NCBI RefSeq assembly: GCF_039545455.1 | Contig: NZ_CP154468.1 | Coordinates: 1,474,195-1,538,194 of the forward strand | Origin: Brucella sp. BE17 | GTDB lineage: Bacteria > Pseudomonadota > Alphaproteobacteria > Rhizobiales > Rhizobiaceae | Direction: 5' to 3' | DNA: 64,000 nucleotides | Shown: one piece after another, positions 29,345-48,643 of the stretch | Layout: the number at the start of each line of letters is the position of its first letter | Numbering within the stretch: the first letter of the stretch is position 1 | Program-made: the position numbers and the translations under genes | The notes under the pieces: model-generated | Databases searched by the model: none | What the model saw: the letters and a program-made list of their open reading frames with translations, nothing else | Told to the model about the DNA's origin: nothing

Positions 29345-29348
29345 GCCG

Positions 29349-30017: not shown

Positions 30018-30026
30018 GAGAGAACG

Positions 30027-31389: not shown

Positions 31390-31422
31390 AATTAACCCAA
31401 CCAATAAAAAGGGAGAAATCAA

Positions 31423-33155: not shown

Positions 33156-34085
33156 TCAAAATTCGTGGATCAGTCCTTCGTATACTTTGTTAATCTCCCT
33201 CACGTCCCGTCGATATTCGTCGATGATCCATTCGCAAATATCATGAATTATCCATTCATTCGGTTTGATCGAAGCCACCAGATCACAGCGCCTGCCTGTC
33301 GAAACGACAACCGGATGCGATGGAACGAGCGAGCCTTTGGCGAGCAACGTAGACACCACGCTTAGCCAGCCAATAGCGTTGCCTTGCCCCATAAGTGCCG
33401 CCTGCACAACGACATTGTAATCCGAAAACTGAAGTTCCCGAGCTATCTCTTTCAGCGCATCGACGGAATATAAATCAGCCCACCTGAACTGCGACCCACT
33501 AAGGGTGATCACCTGGTTCAAACCCGGCTGAGACTGTATCGAATTGCAGTCGAAAGCAGGAGATCGTACAGGTAAAAGAAGCTCTGGCATGAGCGGATAA
33601 ACTCGATACCGGTCATCCACTTTCGGATCAAACCGCATCGCAATATCAGCATCGTTTACCGGACAATCAAGCCGCCCAATGATCAATTGCCACTCGATGT
33701 CGACATCTGGAAACAGTGCCTGAAATGTGTTCATGCGCGGCATAAACCAATGCGTAGCAAAGGCCCCCGAGACTGATATTCGCAACGTTCGTCGCTTCGT
33801 TTTCGCATTTTGCGTTAGTCCAGCCAAAACACGTTCAATATTTGAAAAACTCTTCGAGACTTCTTCGAAAAGATCGCCCCCATGTTCCGTTAGTTCAGCT
33901 CCCGTTGGCGTTCGCTTGAAAAGCTGCATTCCCAAATGAAGCTCCAGCCGCCCGATTGTCCGACTGACCGCGGGACTTGTTACCCCCAGTTCGCGGGCTG
34001 CGTTTGCAAATGTTCCGCACCTGACCGCCGCTTCGAAAGCGACGAGTGCGTTAAGCGAGGGAAGGAGCCGCCGAATTTGTGACAT
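33156..34085 (-). CDS. LysR-family regulator (GcvA-like)
   Basis: About 309 residues. N-terminal winged helix (LLPSLNALVAFEAAVRCGTF, ANAARELGVTSPAVSRTIGR, LELHLGMQLFKRTPTGAELT), then an effector domain (SGAFATHWFMPRMNTFQALF; DIAMRFDPKVDDRYRVYP). Start set at the ATG ending at 34085; six codons further out is another ATG. A dyad TTACA-AAA-TGTAA overlaps this start, and the HAD gene diverges from it. Probably controls the HAD/FAD-oxidase pair and represses itself. Confidence 0.9.
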   Translation of the reverse strand: MSQIRRLLPSLNALVAFEAAVRCGTFANAARELGVTSPAVSRTIGRLELHLGMQLFKRTPTGAELTEHGGDLFEEVSKSFSNIERVLAGLTQNAKTKRRTLRISVSGAFATHWFMPRMNTFQALFPDVDIEWQLIIGRLDCPVNDADIAMRFDPKVDDRYRVYPLMPELLLPVRSPAFDCNSIQSQPGLNQVITLSGSQFRWADLYSVDALKEIARELQFSDYNVVVQAALMGQGNAIGWLSVVSTLLAKGSLVPSHPVVVSTGRRCDLVASIKPNEWIIHDICEWIIDEYRRDVREINKVYEGLIHEF

Positions 34086-34097
34086 TACAAAATGTAA
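34085..34097. promoter_or_regulatory. Candidate LysR box (T-N11-A dyad) at lysR start
   Basis: TTACAAAATGTAA at 34085-34097: TTACA and TGTAA are inverted copies around AAA and satisfy the T-N11-A rule for LysR sites. It touches the start codon of the LysR gene and lies in the divergent promoter region with the HAD gene (34193). Confidence 0.45.
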
Positions 34098-34192
34098 CCC
34101 CATAGGTGATTATTATTGGAATTGATGGATGGGTCCTCAGTATTCCAGAGTAGCTGGACAAGCTTTTGCTCGAAACAGGAGAGAAAATTTTC

Positions 34193-34897
34193 ATGGCCTT
34201 CGAAAACTTCAAAGTTTTGACTTTTGATATCGTCGGAACCTGTATCGACTTCGAGAAGGGTATTCTGGATGGGTTCCGTGCTGCAGGCGGAGAGGCCGCC
34301 AAGACACTGACTGACGATCAGATTTTCCAGCCCTATCTGCAAGCAAGGGTTAAATTTCCAGGTCGTGCCAGTGAGGTCATGCGCGATGTTTACCTGTACG
34401 CAGCAAAGGGACTTGGGCTGCCGGACGACAGCGCCGCGGGTGACAAATTTCATAGCCACTTCTTTGACTTCCCCGCATTCGAGGATTCTGCTGAAGCACT
34501 CAGACGATTGCGCAGGCATTTCAGATTGGTTGCCATGACCAATTACGATCGCGTTGGTTTCAGCGCTAATTCGAATAAACTCGGCAACCCGTTTCACGAC
34601 AGCGTCACAGCTGACGATGCCCAGTATCCGAAACCAGATCCACGCTTCTTTTCCTACAATCTTGGACGCCAATCGGCATTTGGTTTCGTGCAAGATGAAA
34701 TCCTGCATGTTGCCCAGAGCCAATACCACGATATTGGCGTCGCTAGAGAGCTCGGGTACAAAGTCTGCTGGATCGAGCGCCGAAAGGGCCTCAAGGGTTT
34801 CGGCGGAACGCCTGTTCCCAAAGAAGTCACGACGCCGGACTTCCATTTTTCGACCTTGCGAGAACTCGCCGATGCTGTCGAAAACGAGAGAAAATAA
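34193..34897 (+). CDS. HAD-superfamily hydrolase (2-haloacid dehalogenase type)
   Basis: About 234 residues. HAD motif I is VLTFDIVGTCIDF: the first Asp nucleophile (D of TFD) is kept but the usual second Asp of DxDGT is V, the pattern seen in dehalogenase-type members. Motif II MTNYDR, motif III YPKPDPRFF, motif IV region LHVAQSQYHDIGVARELG. Start at ATG 34193 with AGGAGAG upstream. Paired with an FAD oxidase gene 28 bp downstream. Dehalogenation is not proven; similar genes often accompany DAO-type oxidases in amino-acid catabolic loci. Confidence 0.82.
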   Translation: MAFENFKVLTFDIVGTCIDFEKGILDGFRAAGGEAAKTLTDDQIFQPYLQARVKFPGRASEVMRDVYLYAAKGLGLPDDSAAGDKFHSHFFDFPAFEDSAEALRRLRRHFRLVAMTNYDRVGFSANSNKLGNPFHDSVTADDAQYPKPDPRFFSYNLGRQSAFGFVQDEILHVAQSQYHDIGVARELGYKVCWIERRKGLKGFGGTPVPKEVTTPDFHFSTLRELADAVENERK

Positions 34898-34925
34898 CTT
34901 GTAATCAAGCTCAGGTATTTTCCCG

Positions 34926-36221
34926 ATGCCAAAACTCAACCTACCCCGATCTTTGTGGCGTGAGAGTGCAACGCCACCTCTGAACTGCGCGACATTGGAG
35001 GACGACATTGATGCCGATGTGGTCATCATCGGTGGTGGGTATACCGGCTTATCGGCCGCCATAAGAGCAATTGAACTTGGTTTGAAACCTGTTGTTCTCG
35101 AAGCAGAAGAAGTCGGCTTCGGTGCCTCTGGAAGAAATGGCGGCGTTGTATCGACGAAGTATCGCGTATCGCTAAGTGCCATGGCGCAAACTCACGGCAG
35201 GCAAGTCGCTCAACGCATGAACGAGCTTGGTCACGCAGCGATGGATTGTGTTGAAAGCTATGTCGAGCGGTTTCAGATCCGAGACGCGAATCTGACGAAA
35301 ACCGGGAACATTCGCTGTGCGCATAACGAGACCGCATTTGCAGCGCTCGTGGAGGAAGCGAAGACGATCAAGGAGGTATTCGGCGATACGAGCATCGCAG
35401 TGCTTGGGGCTGATGAGATTGCGGCAGAGACCGGAAGTACGCGCTTCTTCGGAGGTGTTTTGAATTCCCATGCTGGCACCATTCATCCGCTCAGTTACTG
35501 CCGGGGTTTGGCCAATGCCGTGCTTTTGGCTGGAGACCTCATTTACGAGAATAGCCCCGTCCTTCGCATCTTGACAGAAGGCTCGGAAAAACTCGTTCGT
35601 ACAAAATCCGGATCGATCAGGTGCAAACAGATTTTGTTCGCAACGAACGCCTATTCCGACATCACGCCTGCCACCAGTAAAGTACGTAAGACCATCATAC
35701 CGTTCAGGAGTGCGATCATCTCGACAGAAGCCCTGCCCAGTTCTGTTTTTGATGAAATTCTTTGCAACAATCGAAGCTACAGCGAGACGCGAAGAATGAT
35801 GCGTTGGTTCCGACGTAGCGGAGACTGTTTGCTTTTTGGTGGCAGGGGCGCTTACGGCAAGAACGACTCCGCGTCCGCCTATGCGACCCTTGAAAGAGCA
35901 ATGTTTGATATCTTCCCGCAGTTGATAGGCTACAGGATAGCCCATCGCTGGTCGGGCCTTGTTGCCATGACGATAGACAGTCTTCCACAAATCGGGTTGA
36001 TCGATAATAATATTGGGTTTTCGCTCGGCTACAATGGAACAGGAATCGCGATGTCGAGCCTTCTCGGACGCTATGCGGTTGACCTTTTGCAAGGCGAAAA
36101 GCCTGATCTGGCGCTGATCCAGCGCCAGAAACCAGAAGATATTCCATTTTTTGCGATGAGAGCGCCAGCCGTCCGTACTGTAGCAGCATGGTATCAGCTG
36201 TTGGATAAATTCGGACGCTGA
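34926..36221 (+). CDS. FAD-dependent amino-acid/amine oxidoreductase (DAO family)
   Basis: A 431-residue flavoprotein: VVIIGGGYTGLSAAIRAIEL near residue 32, LEAEEVGFGASGRNGG (family motif), C-terminal LGYNGTGIAMSSLLGRYAVD. Similar in architecture to the product of 1155-2462. Oxidises an amine to an imine with FAD. Converges with the OYE-type gene, whose end is only 17 bp away, so the two operons meet tail to tail. Confidence 0.86.
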   Translation: MPKLNLPRSLWRESATPPLNCATLEDDIDADVVIIGGGYTGLSAAIRAIELGLKPVVLEAEEVGFGASGRNGGVVSTKYRVSLSAMAQTHGRQVAQRMNELGHAAMDCVESYVERFQIRDANLTKTGNIRCAHNETAFAALVEEAKTIKEVFGDTSIAVLGADEIAAETGSTRFFGGVLNSHAGTIHPLSYCRGLANAVLLAGDLIYENSPVLRILTEGSEKLVRTKSGSIRCKQILFATNAYSDITPATSKVRKTIIPFRSAIISTEALPSSVFDEILCNNRSYSETRRMMRWFRRSGDCLLFGGRGAYGKNDSASAYATLERAMFDIFPQLIGYRIAHRWSGLVAMTIDSLPQIGLIDNNIGFSLGYNGTGIAMSSLLGRYAVDLLQGEKPDLALIQRQKPEDIPFFAMRAPAVRTVAAWYQLLDKFGR

Positions 36222-36238
36222 ATACGCTCCCAAAATCC

Positions 36239-38284
36239 TCAAAGCGAGCTGCATATTCTTATTGCATCCAACATCGCGGAGTGAATGTTTCGACTGGCAA
36301 GAGCATCTCCTATCCGGTGAAGCTCAAATCCCGGTCTTTCGCGGATAGGCTGTGGTCTGGCCTCGACCATAGCCTGTAGATCGGTCACACCGTCGTTTGA
36401 AGAATTGGATCGAAGCGCTTCAAAAACGTCATTGGACGGAACACTCCCCTGCTCCACAACAACATGATCGACCACCACTGTTTCTTTTTCTCGGGTAATA
36501 TCGTTCACAAGCGTTGCGATCAGGCGGTTATCCTGGCGGTGGACTGAAGTTAAATGCGTTTCAGTTTTGGGATACAAGCCGAATTTCAAAAAGAGCTTTT
36601 TCCAGCGTACCCGTTCGGCATAAGTCAATTCTTCACAGATTTGGGCATCTATCGTGACGAATTGGACCTTAGCTCCAAAACCAACGGCCTTCTCGGCCGC
36701 TAACGGAGCTGGATGTCGTCCGGTACCATCAACGACGAGAACTTCACCCGATAGCTTGAATTGACCAGCTAGGATATCCCATGTCGAAACGCATAGATCA
36801 CCGCCATGCAGAAGATCAATTTGCGGCATGCCGCCAGTTGCGAGCAATACAACATCAGGATTAAGTGCGAGGATTTCATCTTCTTCAAGATAGGCATTCG
36901 TTTGAAGCGACACACCGAGACGATTGAGTTCAGCTACCCGCCACTCAACAATGCCGATGAGGTCACTGCGCCAAGATCCCTTCGCGCCGAGAAGTAGCTG
37001 ACCGCCGAAATCGGATGCCGCTTCAAATAACGAAACCTCATGACCCCGTTCCGCACATATTCTGGCAGCCTCAAGACCTGCAGGCCCTCCACCGACCACG
37101 ACGACCTTACGTTTGCCACTTTCGGTTTTCGTAAATACCTGCGGCAGAACTGTCTCTCTCCCGGTTGCTGGATTATGCAGGCACGCCGGACGATGCGGCG
37201 ACTGACAATGTGTAGCACCTACGCATGGCCGAATTTCGCTTTCTCGTCCCGAAGCTATTTTACTTGCAAGGTATGGATCAGCGATCTGCGCTCTGGTCAT
37301 GCCCGCCATATCCATTTTTCCTTCGCGGATAGCGTATCGGGCGGAAGCAGCATCGGAAATACGTGCGGCATGGAATACTGGAATATTTAGCTCCTGGCGG
37401 AAGCGTCCGATCGGCTCGACCCAGGGTGCAAGCGGCGATCCCATTCCGGGCATAGCGTCTTCCGCGAGGCCACGGGTCGTGTCCATCATGCCATAAATCG
37501 CATTGAAGAAATCGATCCCGCCACTATCGCTAAGTGCTTGCGCAACCTTTAGAGATTCTTCGAAATCCATGCCGCCATCGGGCCCTTCATCCACTGCCAT
37601 GCGGATACCCACGACGAAATCATCACCGACAGCCTTTCTAATCGCCTCATGCACCATTAGTGGAAAACGCATTCGGTTTTCGAGCGATCCGCCAAATCGA
37701 TCAGTTCTGCGGTTGGAAATCGGTGATAGGAATTGCCCAATCATGTGACCACCAGAATGCGTTTCGATGCCGTCTAATCCTCCCTCCTTGCATCGTAGCG
37801 CCGCAGCGGCAAACGCCTTCACAACACGATCAATATCATGGTCATCCATCTCTCTGGGTATGCTACGATGAAGCGTCTCGCGGAGGGGTGACGGTGCAAT
37901 CATCGCCAGCCTATCGCCACCATAACTTTCGCCGCGTCGACCCAGATGGGTTATCTGACACATGAGTGCCGCGCCGTGGCGGTGCATACGATCGGCAAAC
38001 TGCTGAAAATGTGGAATAATTTCGTCCGTCCCAACATTTAGTTGCCGAAAGACATTCGGAGAATCAATATCAATATTTGAGGACCCACCGAACATCGACA
38101 GGGCTATTCCCCCCTTGGCCTTCTCTTCATGATACCGTTGATAGGCTTCAAGCGGCAGCCCATTGACCTCCAGTCCACACGCGTGACTGGTGCTCATGAT
38201 GCGATTGCGAAGTTCAAGATGCTTGATTTGCAACGGCTGCAGCAGTGGGTCCTTTTTGACACCGTTGGAGGCTTGCTGGTACAT
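36239..38284 (-). CDS. OYE/TMADH-family flavin oxidoreductase (two-domain)
   Basis: A 681-residue protein. Residues ~1-380 are a TIM-barrel FMN domain (LELRNRIMSTSHACGLEVNG; THLGRRGESYGG; GIETHSGGHMIGQFLSPISN; RTDRFGGSLENRMRFPL). Residues ~390-681 are an FAD/NAD domain (KVVVVGGGPAGLEAARICAE). The linker Cys cluster is CVGATHC then PACLHNPATG: three Cys with unusual spacing instead of the four-Cys 4Fe-4S pattern of 2,4-dienoyl-CoA reductase and TMADH. I recall a CVGA-type cluster in proteins annotated N-methylproline demethylase, so N-demethylation of an N-methylated amino acid is a reasoned guess. Last gene of the leftward module-E operon. Confidence 0.82.
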   Translation of the reverse strand: MYQQASNGVKKDPLLQPLQIKHLELRNRIMSTSHACGLEVNGLPLEAYQRYHEEKAKGGIALSMFGGSSNIDIDSPNVFRQLNVGTDEIIPHFQQFADRMHRHGAALMCQITHLGRRGESYGGDRLAMIAPSPLRETLHRSIPREMDDHDIDRVVKAFAAAALRCKEGGLDGIETHSGGHMIGQFLSPISNRRTDRFGGSLENRMRFPLMVHEAIRKAVGDDFVVGIRMAVDEGPDGGMDFEESLKVAQALSDSGGIDFFNAIYGMMDTTRGLAEDAMPGMGSPLAPWVEPIGRFRQELNIPVFHAARISDAASARYAIREGKMDMAGMTRAQIADPYLASKIASGRESEIRPCVGATHCQSPHRPACLHNPATGRETVLPQVFTKTESGKRKVVVVGGGPAGLEAARICAERGHEVSLFEAASDFGGQLLLGAKGSWRSDLIGIVEWRVAELNRLGVSLQTNAYLEEDEILALNPDVVLLATGGMPQIDLLHGGDLCVSTWDILAGQFKLSGEVLVVDGTGRHPAPLAAEKAVGFGAKVQFVTIDAQICEELTYAERVRWKKLFLKFGLYPKTETHLTSVHRQDNRLIATLVNDITREKETVVVDHVVVEQGSVPSNDVFEALRSNSSNDGVTDLQAMVEARPQPIRERPGFELHRIGDALASRNIHSAMLDAIRICSSL

Positions 38285-38378
38285 CGCTCTTTCCTTTAGA
38301 ATATAGAAACCCGTTCACACCTGGCGCTCGGCCTGGCATGTTCCTGATGCTACTGATGATTTTCGTGTCGTTATTCGG

Positions 38379-39134
38379 CTAGAATATCTGACTTAAGAAC
38401 TGCTGGGTCCGAGGATCCTTGGCTGAGGTAAAGAACTCTTTGGGTGCAGCGTGTTCGACGATTACACCTCGGTCCGTGAAGTAGATGTGATCAGCCACCT
38501 CACGTGCAAAGCCCATTTCATGGGTAACCAGAATGCAGGTCATTCCGTCCGACGCGAGTTCCTTTATCGTCGCCAATACTTCCTTGACGGTCTCAGGATC
38601 GAGCGCTGCTGTGACTTCATCGAAAAGCATAACATCCGGACGCATGGCCAGACTTCGTGCGATTGCGACGCGCTGCTGCTGGCCACCTGACAACTGACCC
38701 GGGTACTGGTTTTCCTTGCCGGTAAGCTTAACTTTTGCGATCAGAGCGCGGGCTCTTTCCTCAACTTCCCGTTTTGGCTCACGCAGTACTTTGATGGGTG
38801 CCATCATGACGTTCTGCAAAACCGTCTTATGCGGAAACAGATTGTACTGCTGAAAGACTATTCCGACCTTTCGCCGCAATGCAAGCTTGTCGAGCTTGGG
38901 ATCATTCACCTCTAGCCCGTCGACGATTATCGAGCCCTTCTGCACCGGGCTTAGACCATTGATGCAACGAATGAGAGTCGACTTGCCCGAACCTGATGGG
39001 CCGATGATGCAGATCACCTCGCCCTTGCGAACATCAAGACTGATCCCTTTAATAACTTCCAGATCACCGTACGCCTTGTGCACATCCTTTAGAGAAACCA
39101 GAGGGCGCGCGTCGATATTGTCTTTAGGCAGCAT
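38379..39134 (-). CDS. Polar amino-acid ABC transporter ATP-binding subunit
   Basis: A 251-residue ATPase: Walker A GPSGSGKST, Q-loop FQQYNLFPHK, signature LSGGQQQRVAIARSL, Walker B VMLFDEVTAALD, switch LVTHEM. It overlaps the upstream permease gene by 11 bases. Followed after 94 bp by the OYE-type flavoenzyme gene. Confidence 0.95.
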   Translation of the reverse strand: MLPKDNIDARPLVSLKDVHKAYGDLEVIKGISLDVRKGEVICIIGPSGSGKSTLIRCINGLSPVQKGSIIVDGLEVNDPKLDKLALRRKVGIVFQQYNLFPHKTVLQNVMMAPIKVLREPKREVEERARALIAKVKLTGKENQYPGQLSGGQQQRVAIARSLAMRPDVMLFDEVTAALDPETVKEVLATIKELASDGMTCILVTHEMGFAREVADHIYFTDRGVIVEHAAPKEFFTSAKDPRTQQFLSQIF

Positions 39135-39960
39135 ATCTTTTCTCCAGTTTTCTTGTCAGAAGCGCGATTGGATAGATGTACGCAAAGAAAAGACAGAGAA
39201 GGAACAGATAGAACGGAAAGAGAAATTCCGGTCGTCCGCCCGACGCTTCCATTGCAGCCTGTGCATTGGCAACAGACTCTCTGACGCTGAAAATCGATGC
39301 CATCGGAGTGGAAAGCGTAAGTAGCGCATACCAGTTCATCCATGGTGGTATCGAACGCCGGAGGCTCTGTGGCAATATGACGTTCCAAAGTGTCTGAACA
39401 CGGGTAAAGCCAAGACTTTCGGCCGATTCCCACTGCCCCGACGGAATGGAACGAACCGATCCACGGACGATCTCGCTTATGTTGCCCATGACGGGCAGTG
39501 CAAAAGCGACCGTTGCTTTCATCCAGCCAGGGAACGGTATCACAACCCCACCCGGAAGACGAAAATTCTCTGGCATCATATACATGGCGATGAAGAGAAT
39601 AACGAGCCAAGGCGAGTTTCTCAGCAGATGCGTCACCAGACGCGCGATGCCTCTTACCGGCCAAAACAAACTGATCTGCATGAGACCAAGTGAAACTCCC
39701 AGAACCGTCGCCAACGCCATCGCTAAAAAACTCATATAGAGGTTCAACACAAAGCCACGCAGGATAAATGGAATCCACCCGAAAAGTGTCTCGACTGCAG
39801 TCGGCGTTCCGGCATTCATTGTTTGCGCATAAGCAACACACAATGACCCGAAGAACAGTGCAATGAGAACTAATCCGTGTCGTAACGACAGAGCGGTAGA
39901 GAATGCCGCTATGCCATAGCGCGAAGGAACGATTGTAAAAGCGCGCTTATTCATGTCCAT
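39124..39960 (-). CDS. Polar amino-acid ABC transporter permease (long form)
   Basis: About 278 residues, longer than the 220 typical because of an N-terminal extension with an extra hydrophobic segment (HGLVLIALFFGSLCVAYA). Core: FVLNLYMSFLAMALATVLGV, LRNSPWLVILFIAMYMMPEN, EAA loop SGQWESAESLGFTRVQTLW. Two candidate ATGs (39960 and 39954) overlap the end of the other permease gene; the second gives an ATGA overlap. Confidence 0.9.
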   Translation of the reverse strand: MDMNKRAFTIVPSRYGIAAFSTALSLRHGLVLIALFFGSLCVAYAQTMNAGTPTAVETLFGWIPFILRGFVLNLYMSFLAMALATVLGVSLGLMQISLFWPVRGIARLVTHLLRNSPWLVILFIAMYMMPENFRLPGGVVIPFPGWMKATVAFALPVMGNISEIVRGSVRSIPSGQWESAESLGFTRVQTLWNVILPQSLRRSIPPWMNWYALLTLSTPMASIFSVRESVANAQAAMEASGGRPEFLFPFYLFLLCLFFAYIYPIALLTRKLEKRYAA

Positions 39961-40699
39961 ACCCCGGTAGTGCCAAACGGCGTTCAAGGGCGTGGAGGCT
40001 CCAAGCGAGAATACTCACAACTGCGACATAGAACACGAACAGCACGAGGATCATCTCAGGCACGTTGATGTTATCCGACCAAACCTGATTGAGGATATAG
40101 GTCATCTCTGGAACGGCGATAACATAAGCAAGCGAGGTTGTTTTGGCCAAACTCACCAGGTTATTCGTCAAGGCTGGTAGGCTAATGCGAAACGCCAGTG
40201 GAAGTGTCACATACATATAGATTTGCCAGTTCGAAAAGCTGAGGCTTTCAGCGGCTTCTTTTGTCGTTTCAGGCACGGCTTCCAGACCGGCCCGGAATAT
40301 CTCGACATTGAACGCCCCGCCAAAAATACCAAGTGAGATTACAGCCCAACCAAAAGAAGAGATGATGGGCTCGTAATACCCCCCCATGTCCACGGCCGGC
40401 GTGAACGCGCCCAGGCCGAAGTAGAAGAACAAAAGTTGGATCATCGGAGGGGTATTTCGAAATGCCTGGATATATGCGTCGACCGCCACGCGAATTATCG
40501 CAATTTTTGACGTTTGCGCCCAAGCTCCCAACACGCCGATGACCAGCGACAGCAAGATAGAGAACGCCATCAGCCGCAGTGAAATCAACGCCCCTTCGAG
40601 AAAGCGGCTAAACTCGTACTCGTCGTAGAAGACGATAAAGTTCAAGCCCGCGGTCTCGTTCAGATTGAGGAAGAAACTTGATATATGTTCGATCATCAT
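39947..40699 (-). CDS. Polar amino-acid ABC transporter permease
   Basis: A 250-residue permease: FLEGALISLRLMAFSILLSL, IQAFRNTPPMIQLLFFYFGL, EAA loop TTKEAAESLSFSNWQIYMYV. Starts 35 bp after the binding-protein gene. Its pair partner is the long-form permease. Confidence 0.92.
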   Translation of the reverse strand: MMIEHISSFFLNLNETAGLNFIVFYDEYEFSRFLEGALISLRLMAFSILLSLVIGVLGAWAQTSKIAIIRVAVDAYIQAFRNTPPMIQLLFFYFGLGAFTPAVDMGGYYEPIISSFGWAVISLGIFGGAFNVEIFRAGLEAVPETTKEAAESLSFSNWQIYMYVTLPLAFRISLPALTNNLVSLAKTTSLAYVIAVPEMTYILNQVWSDNINVPEMILVLFVFYVAVVSILAWSLHALERRLALPGYGHE

Positions 40700-40734
40700 A
40701 ACTCCGAGCTACCACTGATCAGAAAGCACCGGCC

Positions 40735-41595
40735 TCACTCTTTCGGCTCAAGGTAGGCGGTGTCCCAATGGAGCTTCTTATTCTGCTCGGTGAACCAGTT
40801 AGACGGTGCTACGTTCCATTTCTTGGCGAGTTCAATCAGCGTACCATCAGCTTGCCAGCGGTAGGCCATACCGGCCATGAATGCGCCCCAGCCCTTATCG
40901 CGCTCTTCAAGTGGGACGGCAGCAGCCCACGGGTTATTATAAAGGACCGCAACTGGCATCTCGTAATCTTGCCACTCCGGTGTCTCGAGGTCAGCCATTA
41001 TGCTGACGTCATCATAGACCCAGGCAATGCAACGTCCAGCACGCAGAGCTTCTTTACCTTCAGAGTTTCCTGTAAATGCAATCAGCTTTGCTTTCAGTTG
41101 GCGCTCAACTTGTTGATTATAGTAGTTACCCTGCTTTCCGCATACCGGCTTTCCGGCAATGTCGTCCCAGCTTTTGATAACGCCCTTCTTAGCTAGCAAG
41201 GTCGGTCCCGAAGCCCAGTAAGCGGGTTCAATGATACCGATCACCTTACGACGTTCCGCAGTATCATACATACCGCCAACAATAAGATCGATCCGGTTCT
41301 GTTGGAGGAACTGCATGCGGTTCGCAGATGTAATAATGACAGGCTCTAGTTTGACACCCAGCGCATCTGAGACGCTCTTGGCGAGATCAACTTCAATGCC
41401 TTGAAGATTGCCATCTGCCGCGGGGAAAGACCAAGGCTTGAAGGCCCCTTGCAAACCAACACGGAGAGTACCCCGCTCCAAGATTTCCTTCAGTCGCTCG
41501 CCATCAGCACGGGCTTGGCTGGCAAAAAGCGAAATCGCCATTGCAAGCGTGGAAACTGCTACCAAAGCAAGATTTTTCTGTCTGCGCATATCCAT
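40735..41595 (-). CDS. Amino-acid ABC transporter periplasmic binding protein
   Basis: A 286-residue SBP family 3 protein; signal peptide about residues 1-30 (LVAVSTLAMAISLFASQARA, cleavage before DGERL). Mature part: GTLRVGLQGAFKPWSFPAAD, LQGIEVDLAKSVSDALGVKL, RIDLIVGGMYDTAERRKVIG. Two Cys (GKPVCGKQG and AGRCIAWVYD) in the second lobe could form a disulfide. Lies 28 bp after the GlpD-like gene. Confidence 0.92.
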   Translation of the reverse strand: MDMRRQKNLALVAVSTLAMAISLFASQARADGERLKEILERGTLRVGLQGAFKPWSFPAADGNLQGIEVDLAKSVSDALGVKLEPVIITSANRMQFLQQNRIDLIVGGMYDTAERRKVIGIIEPAYWASGPTLLAKKGVIKSWDDIAGKPVCGKQGNYYNQQVERQLKAKLIAFTGNSEGKEALRAGRCIAWVYDDVSIMADLETPEWQDYEMPVAVLYNNPWAAAVPLEERDKGWGAFMAGMAYRWQADGTLIELAKKWNVAPSNWFTEQNKKLHWDTAYLEPKE

Positions 41596-41623
41596 TTCAG
41601 TTCACTCCTCTTTTTTTGTTTCG

Positions 41624-43144
41624 TTAGGACCTTGCAAGCTCTCCCGAACGATAGATTTCCCGTTGGTGCTCAAGAAAGCTGTCTACTTCCTGCTCGATCT
41701 GCCCTGGCTCCCATCCAAGCAGATCGGCGATTTCATTGGCTGCATGAGTGGCGGTGGCTCGGTCTATATGCCGCCCCCAACCTATGCCGCTACGGGTATA
41801 GAATATACCTTTCAGATCCTGGGCGTGTTCCCGCGAGACATAATGCCGAAACGACGGGGCGCCTTTGCCAGCCCCCAACGTCGTATTCGTCTGTTGCATT
41901 TCGCTCCCTTGCCGATCACGTCGCATTGGGATGTTTGCATCTACCGTTGCCAGCAGCTCCCTACCTGCACTCATATGGCTCATGACTGGTCCGGCGGTCA
42001 TCGCGAAAATTCCTGAATGGCCTTTGTCCTTCAAATCATGGATTTGGCGAACTCTGTCGCCATCAGGGTTTTTGGCATTGAAGGTCAACGGTCGCACGCC
42101 AGCCCAAGTGAACTCGACATTCCGTTTTGTCAGTTTGAGCACAGGGAGAAGAAAATTGATTTCGCCGAGTAGGAACTCAATATCGGTATCATCGGTCCTA
42201 ACGTTACTGGCATCACCGTCGAAAGAGGTTTCGGTCGGGCCAATATGATACAGGTCATCCTTGAACGGCAGACAATAAATAGGCATTCCCAATCGGTTAA
42301 GCGCCGCAATCCCGTGGCCACGATAATAATCTGGAAGTCGAACGACTATATGCGCGCCTTTTGTCCCATGAATCAGACGATCATCTCGCTTCCTGAAAAC
42401 GGACTGTAGAACATCATCTATCCAAGTCCCGGCAAGATTGAGAATGACCGGTGCGAACGCACTGCTCATTCCACGATCTGAAGAGCTGAGATCGACCTGC
42501 CACAACCCTTCAGAGTTTTTCTCTCTGATGCTCGCACTGGTGAACAAACGGATATCGGCACCGAGCTTTTCAGCTTCGATGGCCGCATCGACGCAAAGCC
42601 TGTCGGGCCAGTCTATGATGTATTCGCGGTACGTCGCTATGGACTTTAGTTGGTTCCGATCTCGCAGGTCCTTTGCCAGAGGCACGGAATTATCAAAGTT
42701 GTGCTTGTGCCGTTGGTACTCCAGCGGCAGTCGACCCGATCCAAGACGGTTCAAGAGCGAAAGCCCAATATCCAGGTGCCATCCACGCAGATCATCCGCT
42801 TGGTATAAAGGAAAGCACATTTTGAAAGGCTTGCATCGCATTGGCTGGAGACGCACCAGCTCTTCCCGGGCGTTCATAGCGGCACGCGCCATCGCAATCG
42901 CGTTCTTCAACTTCAAAGGCGACGATGCGAACGTACGGACCGGATGCCTCGTCTCAAAATATCTAAGACCGCAGTGCAATATCCTGGATGATCTGCCCGA
43001 TGCGCCGTTTGCGAAATCACCTTTTTCAACAAGAAGGGTTTTATATCCAGCGGCGCAGAGTTCGCGGACAGCGCTGGTACCGTTGATACCACCGCCGATG
43101 ACGATCACATCGTAACTTTCGTTCCGCGCAGCCTCCATACTCAT
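41624..43144 (-). CDS. GlpD-like FAD-dependent dehydrogenase
   Basis: A 506-residue flavoprotein of the glycerol-3-phosphate-dehydrogenase/DAO type: DVIVIGGGINGTSAVRELCA near residue 11, FANGASGRSSRILHCGLRYF near 45, C-terminal FAD contact near WAGVRPLTFN and GIFAMTAGPVMSH. GlpD oxidises glycerol-3-phosphate and feeds quinones. As first gene of an amino-acid ABC operon, this paralogue more likely acts on a different hydroxy or amino substrate (inference). A 27-bp palindrome lies 68 bp upstream of its start. Confidence 0.85.
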   Translation of the reverse strand: MSMEAARNESYDVIVIGGGINGTSAVRELCAAGYKTLLVEKGDFANGASGRSSRILHCGLRYFETRHPVRTFASSPLKLKNAIAMARAAMNAREELVRLQPMRCKPFKMCFPLYQADDLRGWHLDIGLSLLNRLGSGRLPLEYQRHKHNFDNSVPLAKDLRDRNQLKSIATYREYIIDWPDRLCVDAAIEAEKLGADIRLFTSASIREKNSEGLWQVDLSSSDRGMSSAFAPVILNLAGTWIDDVLQSVFRKRDDRLIHGTKGAHIVVRLPDYYRGHGIAALNRLGMPIYCLPFKDDLYHIGPTETSFDGDASNVRTDDTDIEFLLGEINFLLPVLKLTKRNVEFTWAGVRPLTFNAKNPDGDRVRQIHDLKDKGHSGIFAMTAGPVMSHMSAGRELLATVDANIPMRRDRQGSEMQQTNTTLGAGKGAPSFRHYVSREHAQDLKGIFYTRSGIGWGRHIDRATATHAANEIADLLGWEPGQIEQEVDSFLEHQREIYRSGELARS

Positions 43145-43211
43145 TTCCCTTTCCTCGGCGTTGGGCGAGTACAGCAGCTAATTCGGAATGCTCAAAATAA
43201 AAAAAATGGCC

Positions 43212-43238
43212 TCCATTATGCATTAAATGCATAATGGA
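43212..43238. promoter_or_regulatory. 27-bp perfect palindrome, candidate operator of module E
   Basis: Arms TCCATTATGCATT (43212-43224) and AATGCATAATGGA (43226-43238) around a single A; all 13 bases pair. It contains T-N11-A (TGCATTAAATGCA), the LysR consensus shape. It lies 68 bp upstream of the GlpD-like gene and 42 bp beyond the end of the LysR gene at 43280, so it most likely controls the leftward operon. Confidence 0.6.
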
Positions 43239-43279
43239 TTAGGAGCAGGAAATTTAGGCAACTTACCTATTCTTATCAG

Positions 43280-44224
43280 TTAAAAATGCGGTAACTTCGC
43301 CAACGCCGCGTCGCGTTCGCTGAACAAAAGATCCAGAAGCGCCTCCGACACGCGACTTTGCGGACGGGAATAAGGGCGAAGAAGCGCCACGTTGAACGGT
43401 ATTTTAGGCAGGAACGGCACCAGTTTCACGCGATCATCAAGTTGATGAATGGCTGTATAAGGGTCTATAAGCGCGATCCCCAGACCAATTTTGGCAAATT
43501 CATATGCCGCAGCGGAAATCGTTGTTTCATAAGCTGGGTCCAGTTTTTCACCCGCCGCGCGGAATGCCTGCGCGACGACCGGACCAGCTGGGGTAAATGA
43601 GGCAAATGATACGAAGGGTACATTTCGAAGATCCGGCGGCTCAATTTTGTGGCGGCTCGCGAGAGGGTGGTCGCGCGGCACAGCAGCAATATAAGGGGCG
43701 TCGCTGAAAACTTCCGTTTGAAAGCCAGATCTGCGGAACGGGAGCTCAGCAAGACCAAAATCCAGTTGTTGTGACGCAGCCCATTCTTCGATCTTGGCAG
43801 AAAGTCGTATATTCAGCTGCACACGTGTTTGGGGCCAGCTTTCTTTAAACTTCTTTAGCGCCTGAGGCATGAAACTTATCCCAAGAGCGGGCATAGCAGC
43901 CGCAGTAACGCGACTGGTCTCACCTTCGGCAACAGTTGCCGCAAAGTTTCGCAAAGAATCGAGAGATGTATACGCTCGATCGATTTCATCCAGAAGAAGG
44001 TGGGCAACCGATGTCGGTGTGATCAACCCTTTTCTGCGCTCAAAAAGAGTAACGCCCAATTCGGTTTCAAGCTTATTCAAAAGCCGACTGACGGCGGGTT
44101 GGCTTCGCCCTATGAGTTCAGCAGCGGCACTCACCGTTCCTGTTAGCATTACTGCCCGGAAGGCTGAGAAGTAGATGAGGTTCATCCCTACTTCCCAGTT
44201 CTGTTTCCCTGGCTTTTTCATCAA
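43280..44224 (-). CDS. LysR-family regulator
   Basis: A 314-residue frame; the conserved helix-turn-helix begins at residue 14 (MNLIYFSAFRAVMLTGTVSA, AAELIGRSQPAVSRLLNKLE), so the real start may be the ATG ending at 44185. The effector domain carries AAMPALGISFMPQALKKF and YIAAVPRDHPLASRHK. Directly upstream of, and in the same direction as, the GlpD-like/ABC operon. Candidate binder of the 27-bp palindrome. Confidence 0.9.
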   Translation of the reverse strand: MMKKPGKQNWEVGMNLIYFSAFRAVMLTGTVSAAAELIGRSQPAVSRLLNKLETELGVTLFERRKGLITPTSVAHLLLDEIDRAYTSLDSLRNFAATVAEGETSRVTAAAMPALGISFMPQALKKFKESWPQTRVQLNIRLSAKIEEWAASQQLDFGLAELPFRRSGFQTEVFSDAPYIAAVPRDHPLASRHKIEPPDLRNVPFVSFASFTPAGPVVAQAFRAAGEKLDPAYETTISAAAYEFAKIGLGIALIDPYTAIHQLDDRVKLVPFLPKIPFNVALLRPYSRPQSRVSEALLDLLFSERDAALAKLPHF

Positions 44225-44346
44225 ATATCATCCCAGTGCGTCAGTTGTGGCACACACTCGCCTACAACAGTGCCGAGGGCAAATGAAAATAGCGGACAAT
44301 AGTGATGTTAGATTGCAATTCACCCAACAGTATGAAGTAACGGCGT

Positions 44347-45507
44347 TTATTGGATAACAGCCCAAAGATGGTCCTTCACGACAGTCTCATTCAGCTCGAC
44401 ACCAAACCCAATTCGTTCTGAGATCGGAAGGTGTCCATTCTGGACTTTTTCCTCAAAGGGTGCGGTCGCTACTTCAATATAGCCGGGGATGTCAGCCCAA
44501 TATGGGAAATGTTCTTGAATATAAAAGTTGGGCAAACACGCGCCCATATGGGTCGCGATGGTAGCTGCGACAGAACTTCCACAGACATGCGGCTGCACCT
44601 TCAAACCGTATGCGTCAGCCATCGCTGAAATTTTATGGACCTCGGCGAAACCACCAGCATTGCCTATATCCGGCTGCAATATGCTGATCACGCGCCTCTC
44701 CAGAAGGTCGCGAAAACCTTGTCTGAGATAGTGCCGCTCCCCCGTCGCAATCGGAATATCAATCGACGAACCGACTTGAGACAAAGCACCGAGGTCGCCC
44801 GGATCGGTGATTTCCTCAACAAACTCGATATCGTATTCTTTGATACGCTCACAAAACCGCATGGTGTCTGCGGTAGAAATGCCGCCACCGAAATCGAGCA
44901 TGAGTCTGATATCCGGCCCAATCGCTTGCCGCACGCCACGCACGAGTTCGATCCCAGCTGTGACCGCATCGAGATTGTCAGAATATCGTCCAGCTGGATG
45001 CCGCAATGTTCCATTTGGCTGAATCTGTGCCAGCGGATACATCTTCAGAGCATAATGGCCGTCATCAACTGCGTCAGCAGCCTTTTTGATCAGGTCCGAT
45101 GTGGATTTCGCTCCGAAGTACCACCCATTCGCATAGTAGTTTAATTCATCACGAATTTTACCGCCGAAGAGATCATATACCGGCACATTCAATGCTCTGG
45201 CACGAATATCCCACAAGGCCTGCTCGATGGCACTTAAGCCTGCGCAAGCAATTCCGCCGGGATTCTTTAACCAAAAAGCCTGGTCATATATATCCGAAAT
45301 GATCCGATTGATGGACAGCGGATCAGCTCCGAGCAAGAACCGTTCGCTCAGATCTTTAATCATACCAGCTGCGGCAGTACCCCCGCTTCCATAGGAAATA
45401 GCGGCCTCACCCAATCCTGATATACCTTCATCCGTCTGAATTTTCACGAGAACGGGCTTCAGACCCTGTCCGCGCACATAGTAAACGTTGACGGCCACAA
45501 TTTTCAT
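44347..45507 (-). CDS. Enolase-superfamily enzyme (mandelate racemase/sugar-acid dehydratase subgroup)
   Basis: A 386-residue protein. Capping domain residues ~1-115, then the barrel with YALKMYP (catalytic Lys area), metal ligands in LMLDFGGGIS, FVEEITDPGD and IATGERHY, and the late catalytic His in LKVQPHVCGSS. This layout belongs to the mandelate-racemase branch (DgoD/RspA-like), which abstracts a proton alpha to a carboxylate for dehydration or epimerisation. It follows an 84- to 121-residue unknown gene by 30 bp. It lies beside an amino-acid operon, so an amino-acid or betaine epimerase is as plausible as a sugar-acid dehydratase. Confidence 0.85.
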   Translation of the reverse strand: MKIVAVNVYYVRGQGLKPVLVKIQTDEGISGLGEAAISYGSGGTAAAGMIKDLSERFLLGADPLSINRIISDIYDQAFWLKNPGGIACAGLSAIEQALWDIRARALNVPVYDLFGGKIRDELNYYANGWYFGAKSTSDLIKKAADAVDDGHYALKMYPLAQIQPNGTLRHPAGRYSDNLDAVTAGIELVRGVRQAIGPDIRLMLDFGGGISTADTMRFCERIKEYDIEFVEEITDPGDLGALSQVGSSIDIPIATGERHYLRQGFRDLLERRVISILQPDIGNAGGFAEVHKISAMADAYGLKVQPHVCGSSVAATIATHMGACLPNFYIQEHFPYWADIPGYIEVATAPFEEKVQNGHLPISERIGFGVELNETVVKDHLWAVIQ

Positions 45508-45536
45508 TTTCCATACCCACTGTGCAGAAGAAACAA

Positions 45537-45902
45537 TTACACCGCCGCGACACCCACCTGAAGCAGTTTCAATCTCAAATCCTCAAGCGTTCCTTTATAC
45601 TCCCAAGTCTGAACGGTGTTGTGAGGGCACTCAATAAAAATATAATCTTCGGTAACCGACAAAATTCTGGAGACCTTGATAAGTTTCTTTACAAATACAC
45701 CTACGTCAAGATCATCGACGACTGCTTTCCGAGCCTCATCGTATCCATGATATACTTTCGAAGCTCGAATTTCTGCAGTTATGTATGCCATATCTTCATG
45801 TTCCCTGGGTTTTGTTGCAGTCGATGAATGATCCATCCTTATACGAAGGGAGCACCGGAAACCGAAATCGAAAGTAAGCTGATCGGTATGCCGATTTTGC
45901 AT
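45537..45902 (-). CDS. Small protein of unknown function
   Basis: The frame gives up to 121 residues, but the compact domain begins at MAYITAEIRASKVYHGYDEA (ATG ending at 45791), giving 84 residues. Further sequence: DDLDVGVFVKKLIKVSRILS and TEDYIFIECPHNTVQTWEYK. There is no signal peptide or membrane segment. The pattern is an alternating alpha/beta small domain. I do not recognise the family. Thirty bp separate it from the enolase-superfamily gene downstream, so they are probably co-transcribed. Confidence 0.55.
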   Translation of the reverse strand: MQNRHTDQLTFDFGFRCSLRIRMDHSSTATKPREHEDMAYITAEIRASKVYHGYDEARKAVVDDLDVGVFVKKLIKVSRILSVTEDYIFIECPHNTVQTWEYKGTLEDLRLKLLQVGVAAV

Positions 45903-46471
45903 ACCTAAAGGTTGGCGGAAAGCCGTTGATGGGGTGCAGTTAAATAAAGCAATATCTCAACTGGAATTGTCATTTAACACGGTTCCGTTGAAAAAATTCG
46001 CTTGGTACGGATGGTGGCTTACCGTTGGGCGCAATTCGGCGCGACCGTCCGCCAGCAGACCCTCGCGATTGTAAGTATAGCCGAACGTGGCGAAGCTGAA
46101 CAAGGTCCTCGAGCCTATGGAGAAGCCCTGCCCTCAGCACCTTCTTCTTCCAGTTGCGGAAGGGATCGAAGACAGTAACAGCCGTCACGATTCGCAACCT
46201 TGTATAATTTATCCTTCGCTTCAGCGCTGGCGCCATACAAAGCACCGTAACAAAAAGCGCACTCTGACCACCAGAGTTTCTCTTCAAGTCTGTTCGAAAA
46301 GCATTGTCCCGTTCAAAAAATGCTCTGGCGTCCATTGAGCGAGATTGGAAACCCTAAGCCGGTTCTCCACGTGGGGAGAAGACGCAACCCTAAGAAAAGC
46401 ATGCTGCCGGACATATTAGCACGTTTCGTCTGGCACGCGGCCTACATCAACGTGCGCCTCGACTAAACCCA
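45903..46471. other. Gene-free stretch, probable decayed DNA
   Basis: No recognised gene. Protein-like pieces on the minus strand (YTYNREGLLADGRAELRP near 46030-46080) and plus strand (LPDILARFVWHAAYINVRLD near 46400-46463) are bounded by stops. Hairpin TTCTCC/GGAGAA occurs at about 46356-46373. Possibly remnant coding or mobile DNA. Confidence 0.4.
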
Positions 46472-47883: not shown

Positions 47884-48643
47884 TTAGCGGTGCTTTTTGG
47901 CTCGGCTTTGAGCGAGGCGATAGCTGTCGCCGTTCATTTCAAGAATGTTGACGTGGTGGGTGATGCGATCCAGTTGTGTAGCGGTCAACCGCTCGGATCC
48001 GAGTGTTTCCGTCCATTCGTCAAATGGCAGATTGCTGGTGATGAGAGTTGCGCCTCGCTCATAGCGTTGCGAGATCAGCTCGAACAGCAATTCCGCTCCA
48101 GTCTTTGACAACGGCACGAAGCCCAGTTCGGCAATGATCAGCAACCTATAGGCCGCCATCTGCTTCTGGAACCGCAACAGTCGCCGTTTATCACGCGCTT
48201 CCATCATCTCGCTGACCAGGGCAGCTGCCGTGTTGAAACCGACGGATAGGCCCTTTTGGCATGCGGCCAAACCAAGCCCAAGCGCCACATGAGTTTTGCC
48301 CGTGCCACTGGGACCAAGCGCGATGACGTTCTCACGCCGTTCGATCCATTCGCAGCGTGCCAGTTCCAGTACCTGGATCTTATTGAGCTTCGGGATGGCT
48401 GAGAAGTCAAAGCTGTCGAGACTTTTGACTGTTGGGAACCGTGCTGCCCTGATGCGGCGTTCGACTTTGCGGCGCTCCCGCTCGATCATCTCGCGTTCAG
48501 CAAGACGACTGAGATATCCGACATGATCGACCCCTTCGGGGGGCGCATAATCTGGCCAGCTTCTGGTACTCGCGCTGGAAGGTCGGCAGCTTCAAGGTCT
48601 TGAGATAATGGGACAGCAGGATCTCTGGTGCTTCAATGTTCAT
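47884..48643 (-). pseudogene. istB: IS21 helper ATPase IstB, copy 2
   Basis: Same translation as copy 1 (14140-14899), including the extra C that breaks the frame after KLARLC and the Walker-B change LLIIAELGFV. Walker A GPSGTGKTH is intact. Unlikely to hydrolyse ATP normally. Confidence 0.87.

What the first reader, a model, noticed from the sequence alone, without database searches (positions are those of the whole stretch)
33156..45902. Module E: three flavoenzymes of different classes plus importer and enolase-superfamily enzyme
A DAO-type oxidase, a GlpD-like dehydrogenase and an OYE/TMADH-like two-domain enzyme surround one amino-acid ABC transporter, with two LysR regulators, a HAD hydrolase and a mandelate-racemase-type enzyme. 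N-methylated amino acid or betaine breakdown would need epimerisation and stepwise oxidation/demethylation, which this set could supply. The pathway is not one I can name.
Basis: inference. Interest (0 to 1): 0.7.

Follow-up and report, generated by a model that had tools for sequence, protein, structure and literature searches.

The report
Importer-enzyme operon for unusual amino acid
A block of about ten genes, kept together in a range of soil, plant-associated and marine bacteria, seems to import and dismantle an unidentified nitrogen compound, and one of its enzymes resembles the one that breaks open the rare four-membered ring of azetidine-2-carboxylate, which suggests a plant metal-binder of the nicotianamine type as its food.

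Summary
Confirmed and extended. Window 33156-45507 holds LysR1, a HAD hydrolase, a DAO-type oxidase, an OYE/TMADH-like flavoenzyme, a four-gene PAAT importer, a GlpD-like dehydrogenase, LysR2 and an acid-sugar-dehydratase-like enolase. It is not a chance neighbourhood: of 80 HAD-anchored loci, 16 carry HAD+OYE+GlpD-like+importer, and from a GlpD-like anchor OYE is nearby in 20 of 34 regions. The quaternary-betaine reading is weakened: a Rieske demethylase was found in 0 of 63 loci, and the genome has a betaine-type set elsewhere. The HAD is the informative gene. Its best solved relative is L-azetidine-2-carboxylate hydrolase (152 bits; 37% identity); classical L-2-haloacid dehalogenases score about 42, but three entries deposited as (S)-2-haloacid dehalogenase score 120-124. 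HAD-DAO pairs recur, in part beside SSADH and tartrate/D-malate dehydrogenase. Best model (inferred): N-dealkylation of an N-substituted azetidine-2-carboxylate, ring opening by HAD, C-N cleavage by DAO to malate semialdehyde, then D-malate and pyruvate. Nicotianamine or a phytosiderophore is the leading natural candidate. The substrate is unproven; gene content, conservation and linkage are what is shown.

The parts
33156..34103 (-). LysR1, GcvA-type regulator, divergent from HAD (89 bp gap)
   Evidence: in the locus in 14 of 20 type A and 51 of 52 type B loci
34193..34897 (+). HAD hydrolase, azetidine-2-carboxylate-hydrolase-like
   Evidence: best PDB hit 3smv/8ywo/9v14 at 152 bits, next distinct protein 8hp5 at 124; 37% identity to 3smv; TIGR01428 102 bits, below cut-off 125.4
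34926..36221 (+). DAO-family FAD oxidase (best model L-pipecolate oxidase, below cut-off)
   Evidence: PF01266 190 bits; NF050086 209.5 against cut-off 600; in 19 of 20 type A and 49 of 52 type B loci
36239..38284 (-). OYE/TMADH-like two-domain flavoenzyme, named N-methylproline demethylase in some homologues
   Evidence: 44% identical to own paralogue in the betaine-type set
38379..39134 (-). PAAT importer ATP-binding subunit
   Evidence: best model GlnQ NF007027 301.6 bits, below cut-off 379
39124..39987 (-). PAAT importer permease 2 (true start probably near 39960)
   Evidence: annotated permeases in the same place in L001
39947..40699 (-). PAAT importer permease 1
   Evidence: annotated permeases in the same place in L001
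40735..41595 (-). PAAT substrate-binding protein, family 3
   Evidence: PF00497 83 bits; T-A-E-R (112-115) and YDD (194-196) located, their role as amino-acid ligands recalled
41624..43144 (-). GlpD-like FAD dehydrogenase, diverged from glycerol-3-phosphate dehydrogenase
   Evidence: PF01266 133 bits; GlpD model 160 against cut-off 352; Pro at the GGK lysine in 7 of 7
43212..43238 (.). 27-nt perfect palindrome between LysR2 and GlpD-like: operator or LysR2 terminator
   Evidence: related palindromes in 3 of 18 intergenic stretches (L021, L028, L037), none of 8 or more arms in L022 and L023
43280..44224 (-). LysR2 regulator, beside GlpD-like
   Evidence: in 19 of 20 type A loci
44347..45507 (-). 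MR/MLE enolase-superfamily enzyme, acid-sugar-dehydratase-like
   Evidence: PF13378 178 bits; 2poz 390 bits; 88-91% in 5 of 5 same-genus copies examined; in 10 of 20 type A loci by tblastn, 6 of 20 by ORF match
45537..45791 (-). small conserved gene of about 84 aa, function unknown (inside ORF 45537-45902)
   Evidence: 74-88% identity in 5 of 5 same-genus copies examined; no family

Best explanation
A catabolic module imports an amino-acid-like compound through a PAAT ABC importer and dismantles it oxidatively. The compound most likely carries an N-substituted azetidine-2-carboxylate ring, with nicotianamine or a mugineic-acid-type phytosiderophore as the leading natural candidate. OYE/TMADH-like enzyme and GlpD-like dehydrogenase oxidise the N-alkyl or hydroxyl part. 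HAD opens the four-membered ring by attack of its Asp on the ring carbon next to the carboxylate, giving a 4-amino-2-hydroxy acid. DAO cleaves the C-N bond to malate semialdehyde, which an SSADH and a tartrate/D-malate dehydrogenase (elsewhere in this genome) turn into D-malate and pyruvate. The enolase dehydrates a hydroxylated variant or fragment. Shown: gene content, conservation, linkage, family placement. Inferred: every substrate and reaction step, and regulation by the two LysR proteins.
For: HAD's best solved relative is L-azetidine-2-carboxylate hydrolase (152 bits; classical L-2-haloacid dehalogenases 1zrm/1jud about 41-42); 37% identity over 226 columns with the Asp nucleophile, NxDR, K and SxxHD regions shared, against 25% to the genome's own type II HAD. 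HAD and DAO are paired across two otherwise different clusters: 19 of 20 type A, 49 of 52 type B. SSADH is in 3 of 20 A and 17 of 52 B, TDH in 3 of 20 A and 7 of 52 B; both together in 10 of the 80 loci. HAD-DAO-TDH are contiguous in L011 and L073. The own genome has a second HAD-DAO pair beside TTC (578 bits, cut-off 470) and SSADH (684, cut-off 646). Ring opening to 2-hydroxy-4-aminobutyrate by the Pseudomonas enzyme: passage of PMC8016842. Nicotianamine holds this ring: passage of PMC11794875. Replacing the azetidine ring of deoxymugineic acid by proline is said to slow its microbial degradation: passage of PMC12364333. Phytosiderophores are degraded by microbes: passages of PMC5605604 and PMC7786132.
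Against: Three entries deposited as (S)-2-haloacid dehalogenase (8hp5-8hp7) score 120-124 bits, not far below 3smv, and 3smv itself also carries that name; 8hp5 shares the SxxHD region, so that motif is not specific. 37% identity does not fix a substrate, and HAD has Val (position 14) where the hydrolase has Tyr. The Pseudomonas enzyme is described as periplasmic; the window HAD begins without an evident signal peptide (by eye). SSADH and TDH lie near type A clusters in only 3 of 20 loci, and in 1 and 0 of 34 GlpD-anchored regions. HAD is missing from 27 of 34 GlpD-anchored regions, so the OYE/GlpD-like core also serves something that needs no HAD. Several hosts are marine by name or source, where azetidines are little known (recalled). 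Type B has alcohol-oxidising genes (GMC, ALDH) that nicotianamine gives no work. In P. [quoted passage not shown] No ligand, activity or expression data; no structure prediction.
Confidence: 0.3

Rival explanations
1. The module degrades N-methylated, possibly hydroxylated, proline-type imino acids (tertiary or secondary amines, not betaines): OYE N-demethylates, the enolase dehydrates, an imine reductase finishes in relatives. HAD and DAO handle a side product.
For: Three of the 120 listed OYE homologues bear the name N-methylproline demethylase, as does one plasmid hit; StcD is so described in a passage of PMC12239276. OCD-family or P5CR-like imine reductases are in 5 and 2 of 34 GlpD-anchored regions, the enolase in 6 of 34.
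Against: The window enolase matches the cis-3-hydroxyproline dehydratase model only weakly (35 bits against cut-off 500). The genome's OYE paralogue sits elsewhere with Rieske and betaine-type ABC genes. No StcD sequence was compared here. It leaves the HAD unexplained.
Confidence: 0.22
2. The substrate is an opine or sugar-amino-acid conjugate (polyhydroxylated N-alkyl amino acid): GlpD-like oxidises a polyol hydroxyl, OYE or DAO cleaves the C-N bond, the enolase dehydrates the released sugar acid.
For: Enolase is acid-sugar-dehydratase-like; GlpD-like is of an alcohol-oxidising family; peptide/nickel/opine-class importers replace PAAT in relatives; threonate-pathway genes follow HAD-DAO-TDH in L011; a set that looks like opine oxidase (recalled) lies in L016.
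Against: The enolase is absent from many copies (found in 10 of 20 type A, 6 of 34 GlpD-anchored). The ring-hydrolase-like HAD has no role.
Confidence: 0.2
3. HAD is a 2-haloacid dehalogenase and the module breaks down or detoxifies a halogenated amino acid.
For: 8hp5-8hp7, deposited as (S)-2-haloacid dehalogenase, are the next-best solved relatives (120-124 bits); TIGR01428 102 bits.
Against: Below the 125.4 cut-off; classical dehalogenases score about 42; constant pairing with an amine oxidase.
Confidence: 0.08
4. Quaternary betaine (stachydrine, hydroxyproline betaine) breakdown.
For: OYE relatives named N-methylproline demethylase; an enolase acts as an epimerase in hydroxyproline betaine breakdown (recalled).
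Against: Rieske found in 0 of 63 loci; PAAT importer; own betaine-type set elsewhere.
Confidence: 0.06

Closest known systems
L-azetidine-2-carboxylate hydrolase (Pseudomonas A2C; PDB 3smv/8ywo/9v14; fungal AzhA)
   Same: Closest solved relative of the HAD; 37% identity; Asp nucleophile, NxDR, K and SxxHD regions shared
   Different: Tyr to Val two residues after the nucleophile; the known enzyme is described as periplasmic and as acting on the free imino acid, here it is fixed in a flavoenzyme cluster
8hp5-8hp7, deposited as (S)-2-haloacid dehalogenase
   Same: Second-closest solved relative of the HAD, 120-124 bits
   Different: D-C-Y-G-T and N-x-D-N in place of D-I-V-G-T and N-x-D-R (alignment printed)
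StcD / N-methylproline demethylase (stachydrine catabolism, Sinorhizobium)
   Same: Family name shared by some OYE homologues; own paralogue in the betaine-type set 44% identical
   Different: No Rieske enzyme found nearby (0 of 63), different importer, linked to GlpD-like; StcD itself not compared
Trimethylamine dehydrogenase / histamine dehydrogenase / 2,4-dienoyl-CoA reductase
   Same: FMN barrel plus Rossmann domain
   Different: Second cluster cysteine is Ala in 32 of 32 readable rows (duplicates included); catalytic Tyr/His of TMADH (roles recalled) not matched
GlpD glycerol-3-phosphate dehydrogenase
   Same: Same DAO-fold family; GLRY and GVRPL segments kept
   Different: 160 bits against cut-off 352; Lys of GGK(L/I)T is Pro in 7 of 7
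Acid-sugar dehydratases of the enolase superfamily (2poz, a putative dehydratase; galactonate dehydratase)
   Same: 390 bits to 2poz over the whole length; Asp-His and acidic metal-ligand segments present (positions, roles recalled)
   Different: Below the galactonate dehydratase cut-off (233 of 311); context is amine catabolism
Opine uptake and oxidation systems of agrobacteria
   Same: Importer for an N-alkyl amino acid plus flavin C-N oxidation (recalled)
   Different: Different flavoenzymes; HAD and OYE are not part of them (recalled)

Membership tests
L-azetidine-2-carboxylate hydrolase | Sequence closest to the known hydrolase among solved HADs | tested here: met
   152 bits; next 8hp5-8hp7 120-124 (named dehalogenase), classical dehalogenases about 42
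L-azetidine-2-carboxylate hydrolase | Same residues around the nucleophile (D-C-Y-G-T) | tested here: not met
   D-I-V-G-T in the window; D-[IV]-V-G-T in 11 of 11 rows of A3
L-azetidine-2-carboxylate hydrolase | Hydrolyses azetidine-2-carboxylate | not testable with these tools
   needs enzyme assay
Haloacid dehalogenase type II (TIGR01428) | Curated score | tested here: not met
   102 against 125.4
Stachydrine/hydroxyproline betaine pathway | Rieske N-demethylase in the cluster | tested here: not met
   0 of 63 loci by tblastn with the L121 protein; two pairs of the 63 are the same record
Stachydrine/hydroxyproline betaine pathway | Betaine epimerase-type enolase (HpbD) | tested here: inconclusive
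   not recognised among the 60 best of 160 PDB hits shown
TMADH family | FMN (Oxidored_FMN) plus pyridine-nucleotide-disulphide-like domain | tested here: met
   PF00724 and PF07992 over their cut-offs
TMADH family | Four cysteines of the 4Fe-4S cluster | tested here: not met
   three of four; Ala at the second in 12 of 12 and 32 of 32 readable rows
GlpD glycerol-3-phosphate dehydrogenase | Curated score and active-site Lys | tested here: not met
   160 against 352; Pro in 7 of 7; role of the Lys recalled
L-pipecolate oxidase AmaA | Curated score | tested here: not met
   209.5 against 600
Galactonate dehydratase (NF010624) | Curated score | tested here: not met
   233.5 against 311
Enolase superfamily, MR/MLE group | N- and C-terminal Pfam domains | tested here: met
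   PF02746 and PF13378 above cut-offs
PAAT (family 3) amino acid ABC importer | SBP_bac_3 binding protein, two permeases, GlnQ-like ATPase | tested here: met
   PF00497 over cut-off; ATPase closest to GlnQ; permeases by position and annotated homologues, not scanned by profile
Nicotianamine/phytosiderophore catabolism | Growth or induction on nicotianamine or deoxymugineic acid | not testable with these tools
   needs culture work

The most novel reading that the evidence does not exclude
This is a dedicated bacterial pathway that eats azetidine-ring plant chelators (nicotianamine or phytosiderophores): an importer, two N-dealkylating flavoenzymes and an azetidine-ring hydrolase that together turn a metal chelator into D-malate and amino acids. 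It would give a full enzyme set to a soil process known mainly as an activity.
Probability: 0.2. Interest if true: 0.8.

Novelty: new variant of a known kind. Interest (0 to 1): 0.5.

Why it matters
If the ring assignment holds, the HAD family here marks azetidine catabolism across many Alpha- and Betaproteobacteria and links it to flavoenzyme N-dealkylation. Microbial loss of phytosiderophores is reported to induce iron deficiency in grasses (passage of PMC5605604), and exchanging their azetidine ring for proline is said to slow microbial degradation (passage of PMC12364333), so the ring may be a point of attack. Candidate genes have been proposed for P. fluorescens SBW25 (porin, transporter, monooxygenase; passages of PMC7786132); a gene set like this one was not seen in the listings (titles and abstract starts, open-licence library only). 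Even if the substrate proves different, the module is a well-bounded, repeatedly conserved unknown pathway with a short list of testable substrates, and the betaine reading is corrected.

Tried and rejected
Stachydrine/betaine pathway: set aside because no Rieske gene was found (0 of 63) and the genome has a separate set. Haloacid dehalogenase: kept as a minor rival; score below cut-off and poor match to classical enzymes, but 8hp5-8hp7 speak for it. Unusual Fe-S loss in this OYE as a special feature: rejected, because the own paralogue and all 32 readable rows share it. Glycerol-3-phosphate dehydrogenase: model and lysine tests failed. A generic palindrome pattern (TGTTC-N5-GAACA, one mismatch) gave no excess (3 found, 2.17 expected), and promoter-like sites were not in excess (11 found, 11.5 expected); terminator-like sites were 21 against 14.2 expected. 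Rhizosphere transcriptomics (PMC3333776, passages) and PMC4136779 (passage) gave no clear link to this gene set. PMC12184663 (passages) only says that some HAD clusters were assigned to azetidine hydrolysis. The J Bacteriol 2008 azetidine paper (PMC2447002) and PMC2898465 are not held; nothing was read from them.

Rows dropped and overlaps: four rows (L107, L109, L110, L112) were read in a wrong frame because those loci are not turned to the match strand, so their places in that tree mean nothing; rebuilt the tree without them and without L105 and L106 (duplicates of L033, L034). Of 44 GlpD-like places besides the own one, 35 were fetched in 34 regions; 9 were not (G161:C483; G756:C52 and C88; G920:C18 and C10; G654:C44 and C2; G830:C441; G845:C123). 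Of six other window-type HAD copies in the genus, five were examined for the enolase; G122 was not. L003/L045 and L039/L131 are the same records, and L030/L073 lie on one contig. The own OYE paralogue joins L015 by long branches, flagged unsafe by the tree tool. P. fluorescens SBW25 was not searched for this module.


Full report
What is there. The window lies at 1,474,195-1,538,194 of the second contig of a 3.89 Mb two-contig genome. Its nearest named relatives seen are Ochrobactrum/Brucella in the broad sense: HAD 97% in Ochrobactrum sp. RH2CCR150 and 92% in Brucella pecoris, OYE 95% in a Brucella anthropi protein. Between 33156 and 45507 are two LysR regulators, a HAD hydrolase and a DAO oxidase on the plus strand, and on the minus strand an OYE/TMADH-like flavoenzyme, a complete PAAT importer, a GlpD-like dehydrogenase and an enolase-superfamily enzyme. 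Gaps within the minus-strand block from GlpD-like to OYE run from -41 to 94 bp.

It is one module. A scan of one genome per species with a HAD alignment found 462 relatives, of which the best 80 were kept. Of these 80, 20 carry the PAAT binding protein and/or OYE (type A): OYE in 18, GlpD-like in 16, LysR2 in 19, DAO in 19; HAD+OYE+GlpD-like+binding protein together in 16, with DAO and LysR2 as well in 15. Another 52 carry a different set around the same LysR1-HAD-DAO core (type B): a PotABCD-like importer, often with a GMC dehydrogenase (37) and an ALDH (23). Eight carry neither. The anchor was then changed to the GlpD-like protein. It is rare: 20 of 397 genomes of the order and 15 of 385 of the class, own genome counted in both. 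In 34 fetched regions OYE is nearby in 20, enolase in 6, an OCD-family imine reductase in 5, a P5CR-like one in 2, and HAD in 7; all 7 with HAD also have OYE and the PAAT binding protein, while an eighth region with that binding protein (L147) has none of HAD, DAO or OYE in its 19.9 kb. The core is therefore GlpD-like plus OYE, with enolase and imine reductase as accessories, PAAT or Opp importers as alternatives, and HAD-DAO added in the window type. The enolase is in place in the 5 same-genus window-type copies examined, at 88-91% identity, and in 10 of 20 type A loci. Within the genus the HAD is patchy: 16 of 35 genomes, 7 at 93-100% (one of them a partial copy with a stop) and 9 at 62-64%.

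The HAD is the clue. Its closest solved relative is L-azetidine-2-carboxylate hydrolase (3smv, 8ywo, 9v14; 152 bits). Classical L-2-haloacid dehalogenases (1zrm, 1jud) score about 41-42, but 8hp5-8hp7, deposited as (S)-2-haloacid dehalogenase, score 120-124, and 3smv carries that name too. The subfamily is therefore clear but the reaction is not. Identity to 3smv is 37% over 226 columns, and the Asp nucleophile, NxDR, K and SxxHD regions agree; the genome's own type II HAD is 25% identical and lacks NxDR and SxxHD. 8hp5 has the SxxHD region but N-x-D-N in place of NxDR (alignment). Against the assignment, the residue two after the nucleophile is Val, not Tyr. In passages of PMC8016842 the Pseudomonas enzyme is said to convert azetidine-2-carboxylate to 2-hydroxy-4-aminobutyrate in the periplasm. 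The same text gives 44.5% identity for the fungal enzyme, so 37% is a step further away.

What HAD and DAO probably do together. The pair recurs, in part, with an SSADH and a tartrate/D-malate dehydrogenase. Both are present in 3 of 20 type A loci; in type B, SSADH is in 17 of 52 and TDH in 7 of 52; both together in 10 of 80. HAD-DAO-TDH are contiguous in Aminobacter (L011) and in L073. The own genome has a second HAD-DAO pair, with a type II HAD, directly beside SSADH (684, cut-off 646) and TTC (578 bits, cut-off 470), and with a class III aminotransferase, an M20 deacylase and an Opp-type binding protein in the same stretch. Inference: ring opening gives R-NH-CH2-CH2-CH(OH)-COOH, DAO cleaves it to malate semialdehyde, SSADH makes malate and TTC makes pyruvate. 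Inversion to the D form is expected by analogy with L-2-haloacid dehalogenases (recalled). None of these steps has been shown, and SSADH/TDH linkage to the window type is thin.

The other enzymes. Three of the 120 OYE homologues listed are named N-methylproline demethylase; StcD is so described in a passage of PMC12239276, but no StcD sequence was compared. OYE lacks one of the four Fe-S cysteines of trimethylamine dehydrogenase, but so do all 32 rows that were readable, the own paralogue included, so this is a family trait. GlpD-like fails the GlpD model (160 of 352) and has Pro for the GGK lysine in 7 of 7. DAO fails the pipecolate oxidase cut-off. The enolase is closest to 2poz and to acid-sugar dehydratases. 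The binding protein is a family 3 amino-acid binder.

Why probably not a betaine. Degradation of quaternary betaines starts with a Rieske demethylase (recalled for stachydrine and hydroxyproline betaine). None was found in 63 loci (20 type A, 9 plasmid, 34 GlpD-anchored; two pairs are the same record), using the Rieske protein of L121 as the one tblastn query, so a distant one could be missed. L121 is the own genome's set of a Rieske GbcA-like enzyme (492 bits, cut-off 670), betaine-type ABC genes (proV model 333, cut-off 327) and an OYE 44% identical to the window's. The window module therefore probably serves something else.

Which substrate. Azetidine-2-carboxylate occurs free in some plants and inside nicotianamine, which plants assemble from three aminocarboxypropyl units (passage of PMC11794875). 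Nicotianamine is an N-alkyl amino acid with a free amino-acid end, which suits a PAAT importer and two N-dealkylating flavoenzymes. Mugineic-type compounds add hydroxyls, which could explain an optional dehydratase. Microbial breakdown of phytosiderophores is reported (passages of PMC5605604, and PMC7786132), and replacing the azetidine ring by proline is said to slow it (passage of PMC12364333). Against it: marine hosts, the alcohol chemistry implied by type B, the many GlpD-like/OYE clusters without HAD, and the different candidate genes proposed in P. fluorescens SBW25. I put 0.30 on an N-substituted azetidine ring and 0.2 on the chelators specifically.

Small features. A 27-nt perfect palindrome at 43212-43238 lies between LysR2 and GlpD-like. 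Of 18 intergenic stretches compared, L021 has a near copy, and L028 and L037 have altered sequences that stay palindromic; L022 and L023, close relatives, show none of eight or more arms. A T-run follows it, so it may be an operator or the LysR2 terminator. The ORF at 45537-45902 contains a conserved gene of about 84 aa.

Limits. No structure prediction was possible. The key 2008 azetidine paper is not held. All function claims rest on homology and context.

Noticed in passing
G000:C2:517001-537000 (L120): Own-genome cluster with a second HAD-DAO pair (type II HAD), TTC, SSADH, class III aminotransferase, M20 deacylase, GhrA-like and an Opp/NikA-like binding protein: another catabolic cluster of unassigned substrate.
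   Followed up: partly
G000:C2:418001-438000 (L121): Own-genome set of Rieske GbcA-like enzyme, betaine/choline-type ABC genes, LysR and an OYE paralogue, possibly the real stachydrine or N-methylproline system.
   Followed up: partly
52 of the loci L041-L100, e.g. L010:7877-16989: Type B cluster LysR-potA-HAD-DAO-SBP-permeases-GMC-ALDH in rhizobia, Bosea, Brucella-group and Burkholderiaceae: a widespread pathway sharing HAD-DAO, substrate unknown.
   Followed up: partly
L011:9001-15781: HAD-DAO-TDH followed by genes annotated L-threonate dehydrogenase, 3-oxo-tetronate kinase and aldolase in Aminobacter: suggests a C4 hydroxy acid as product.
   Followed up: no
window 43212-43238: 27-nt perfect palindrome before the GlpD-like gene; L028 and L037 have altered but still palindromic versions, L022 and L023 have none of eight or more arms.
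   Followed up: partly
window 45537-45902: Small conserved gene (about 84 aa from an inner Met), no family.
   Followed up: partly
window 45970-46335: ORF of 121 aa with no Pfam hit and no match in five same-genus copies of the region; probably not a gene.
   Followed up: partly
window 28073-32214: D-serine-dehydratase/alanine-racemase-like protein (PF14031, PF01168) followed by what looks like a second amino-acid ABC set (ORFs, not scanned).
   Followed up: no
window 47884-50137 and 12646-14043: IS21-like istB/istA pair by appearance, and an ORF of the same 465 aa length at the other end of the window (family by recall).
   Followed up: no
OYE family, rows: The second Fe-S cysteine of TMADH is Ala in 32 of 32 readable rows (duplicates included), so the family may hold a modified or absent cluster.
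   Followed up: partly
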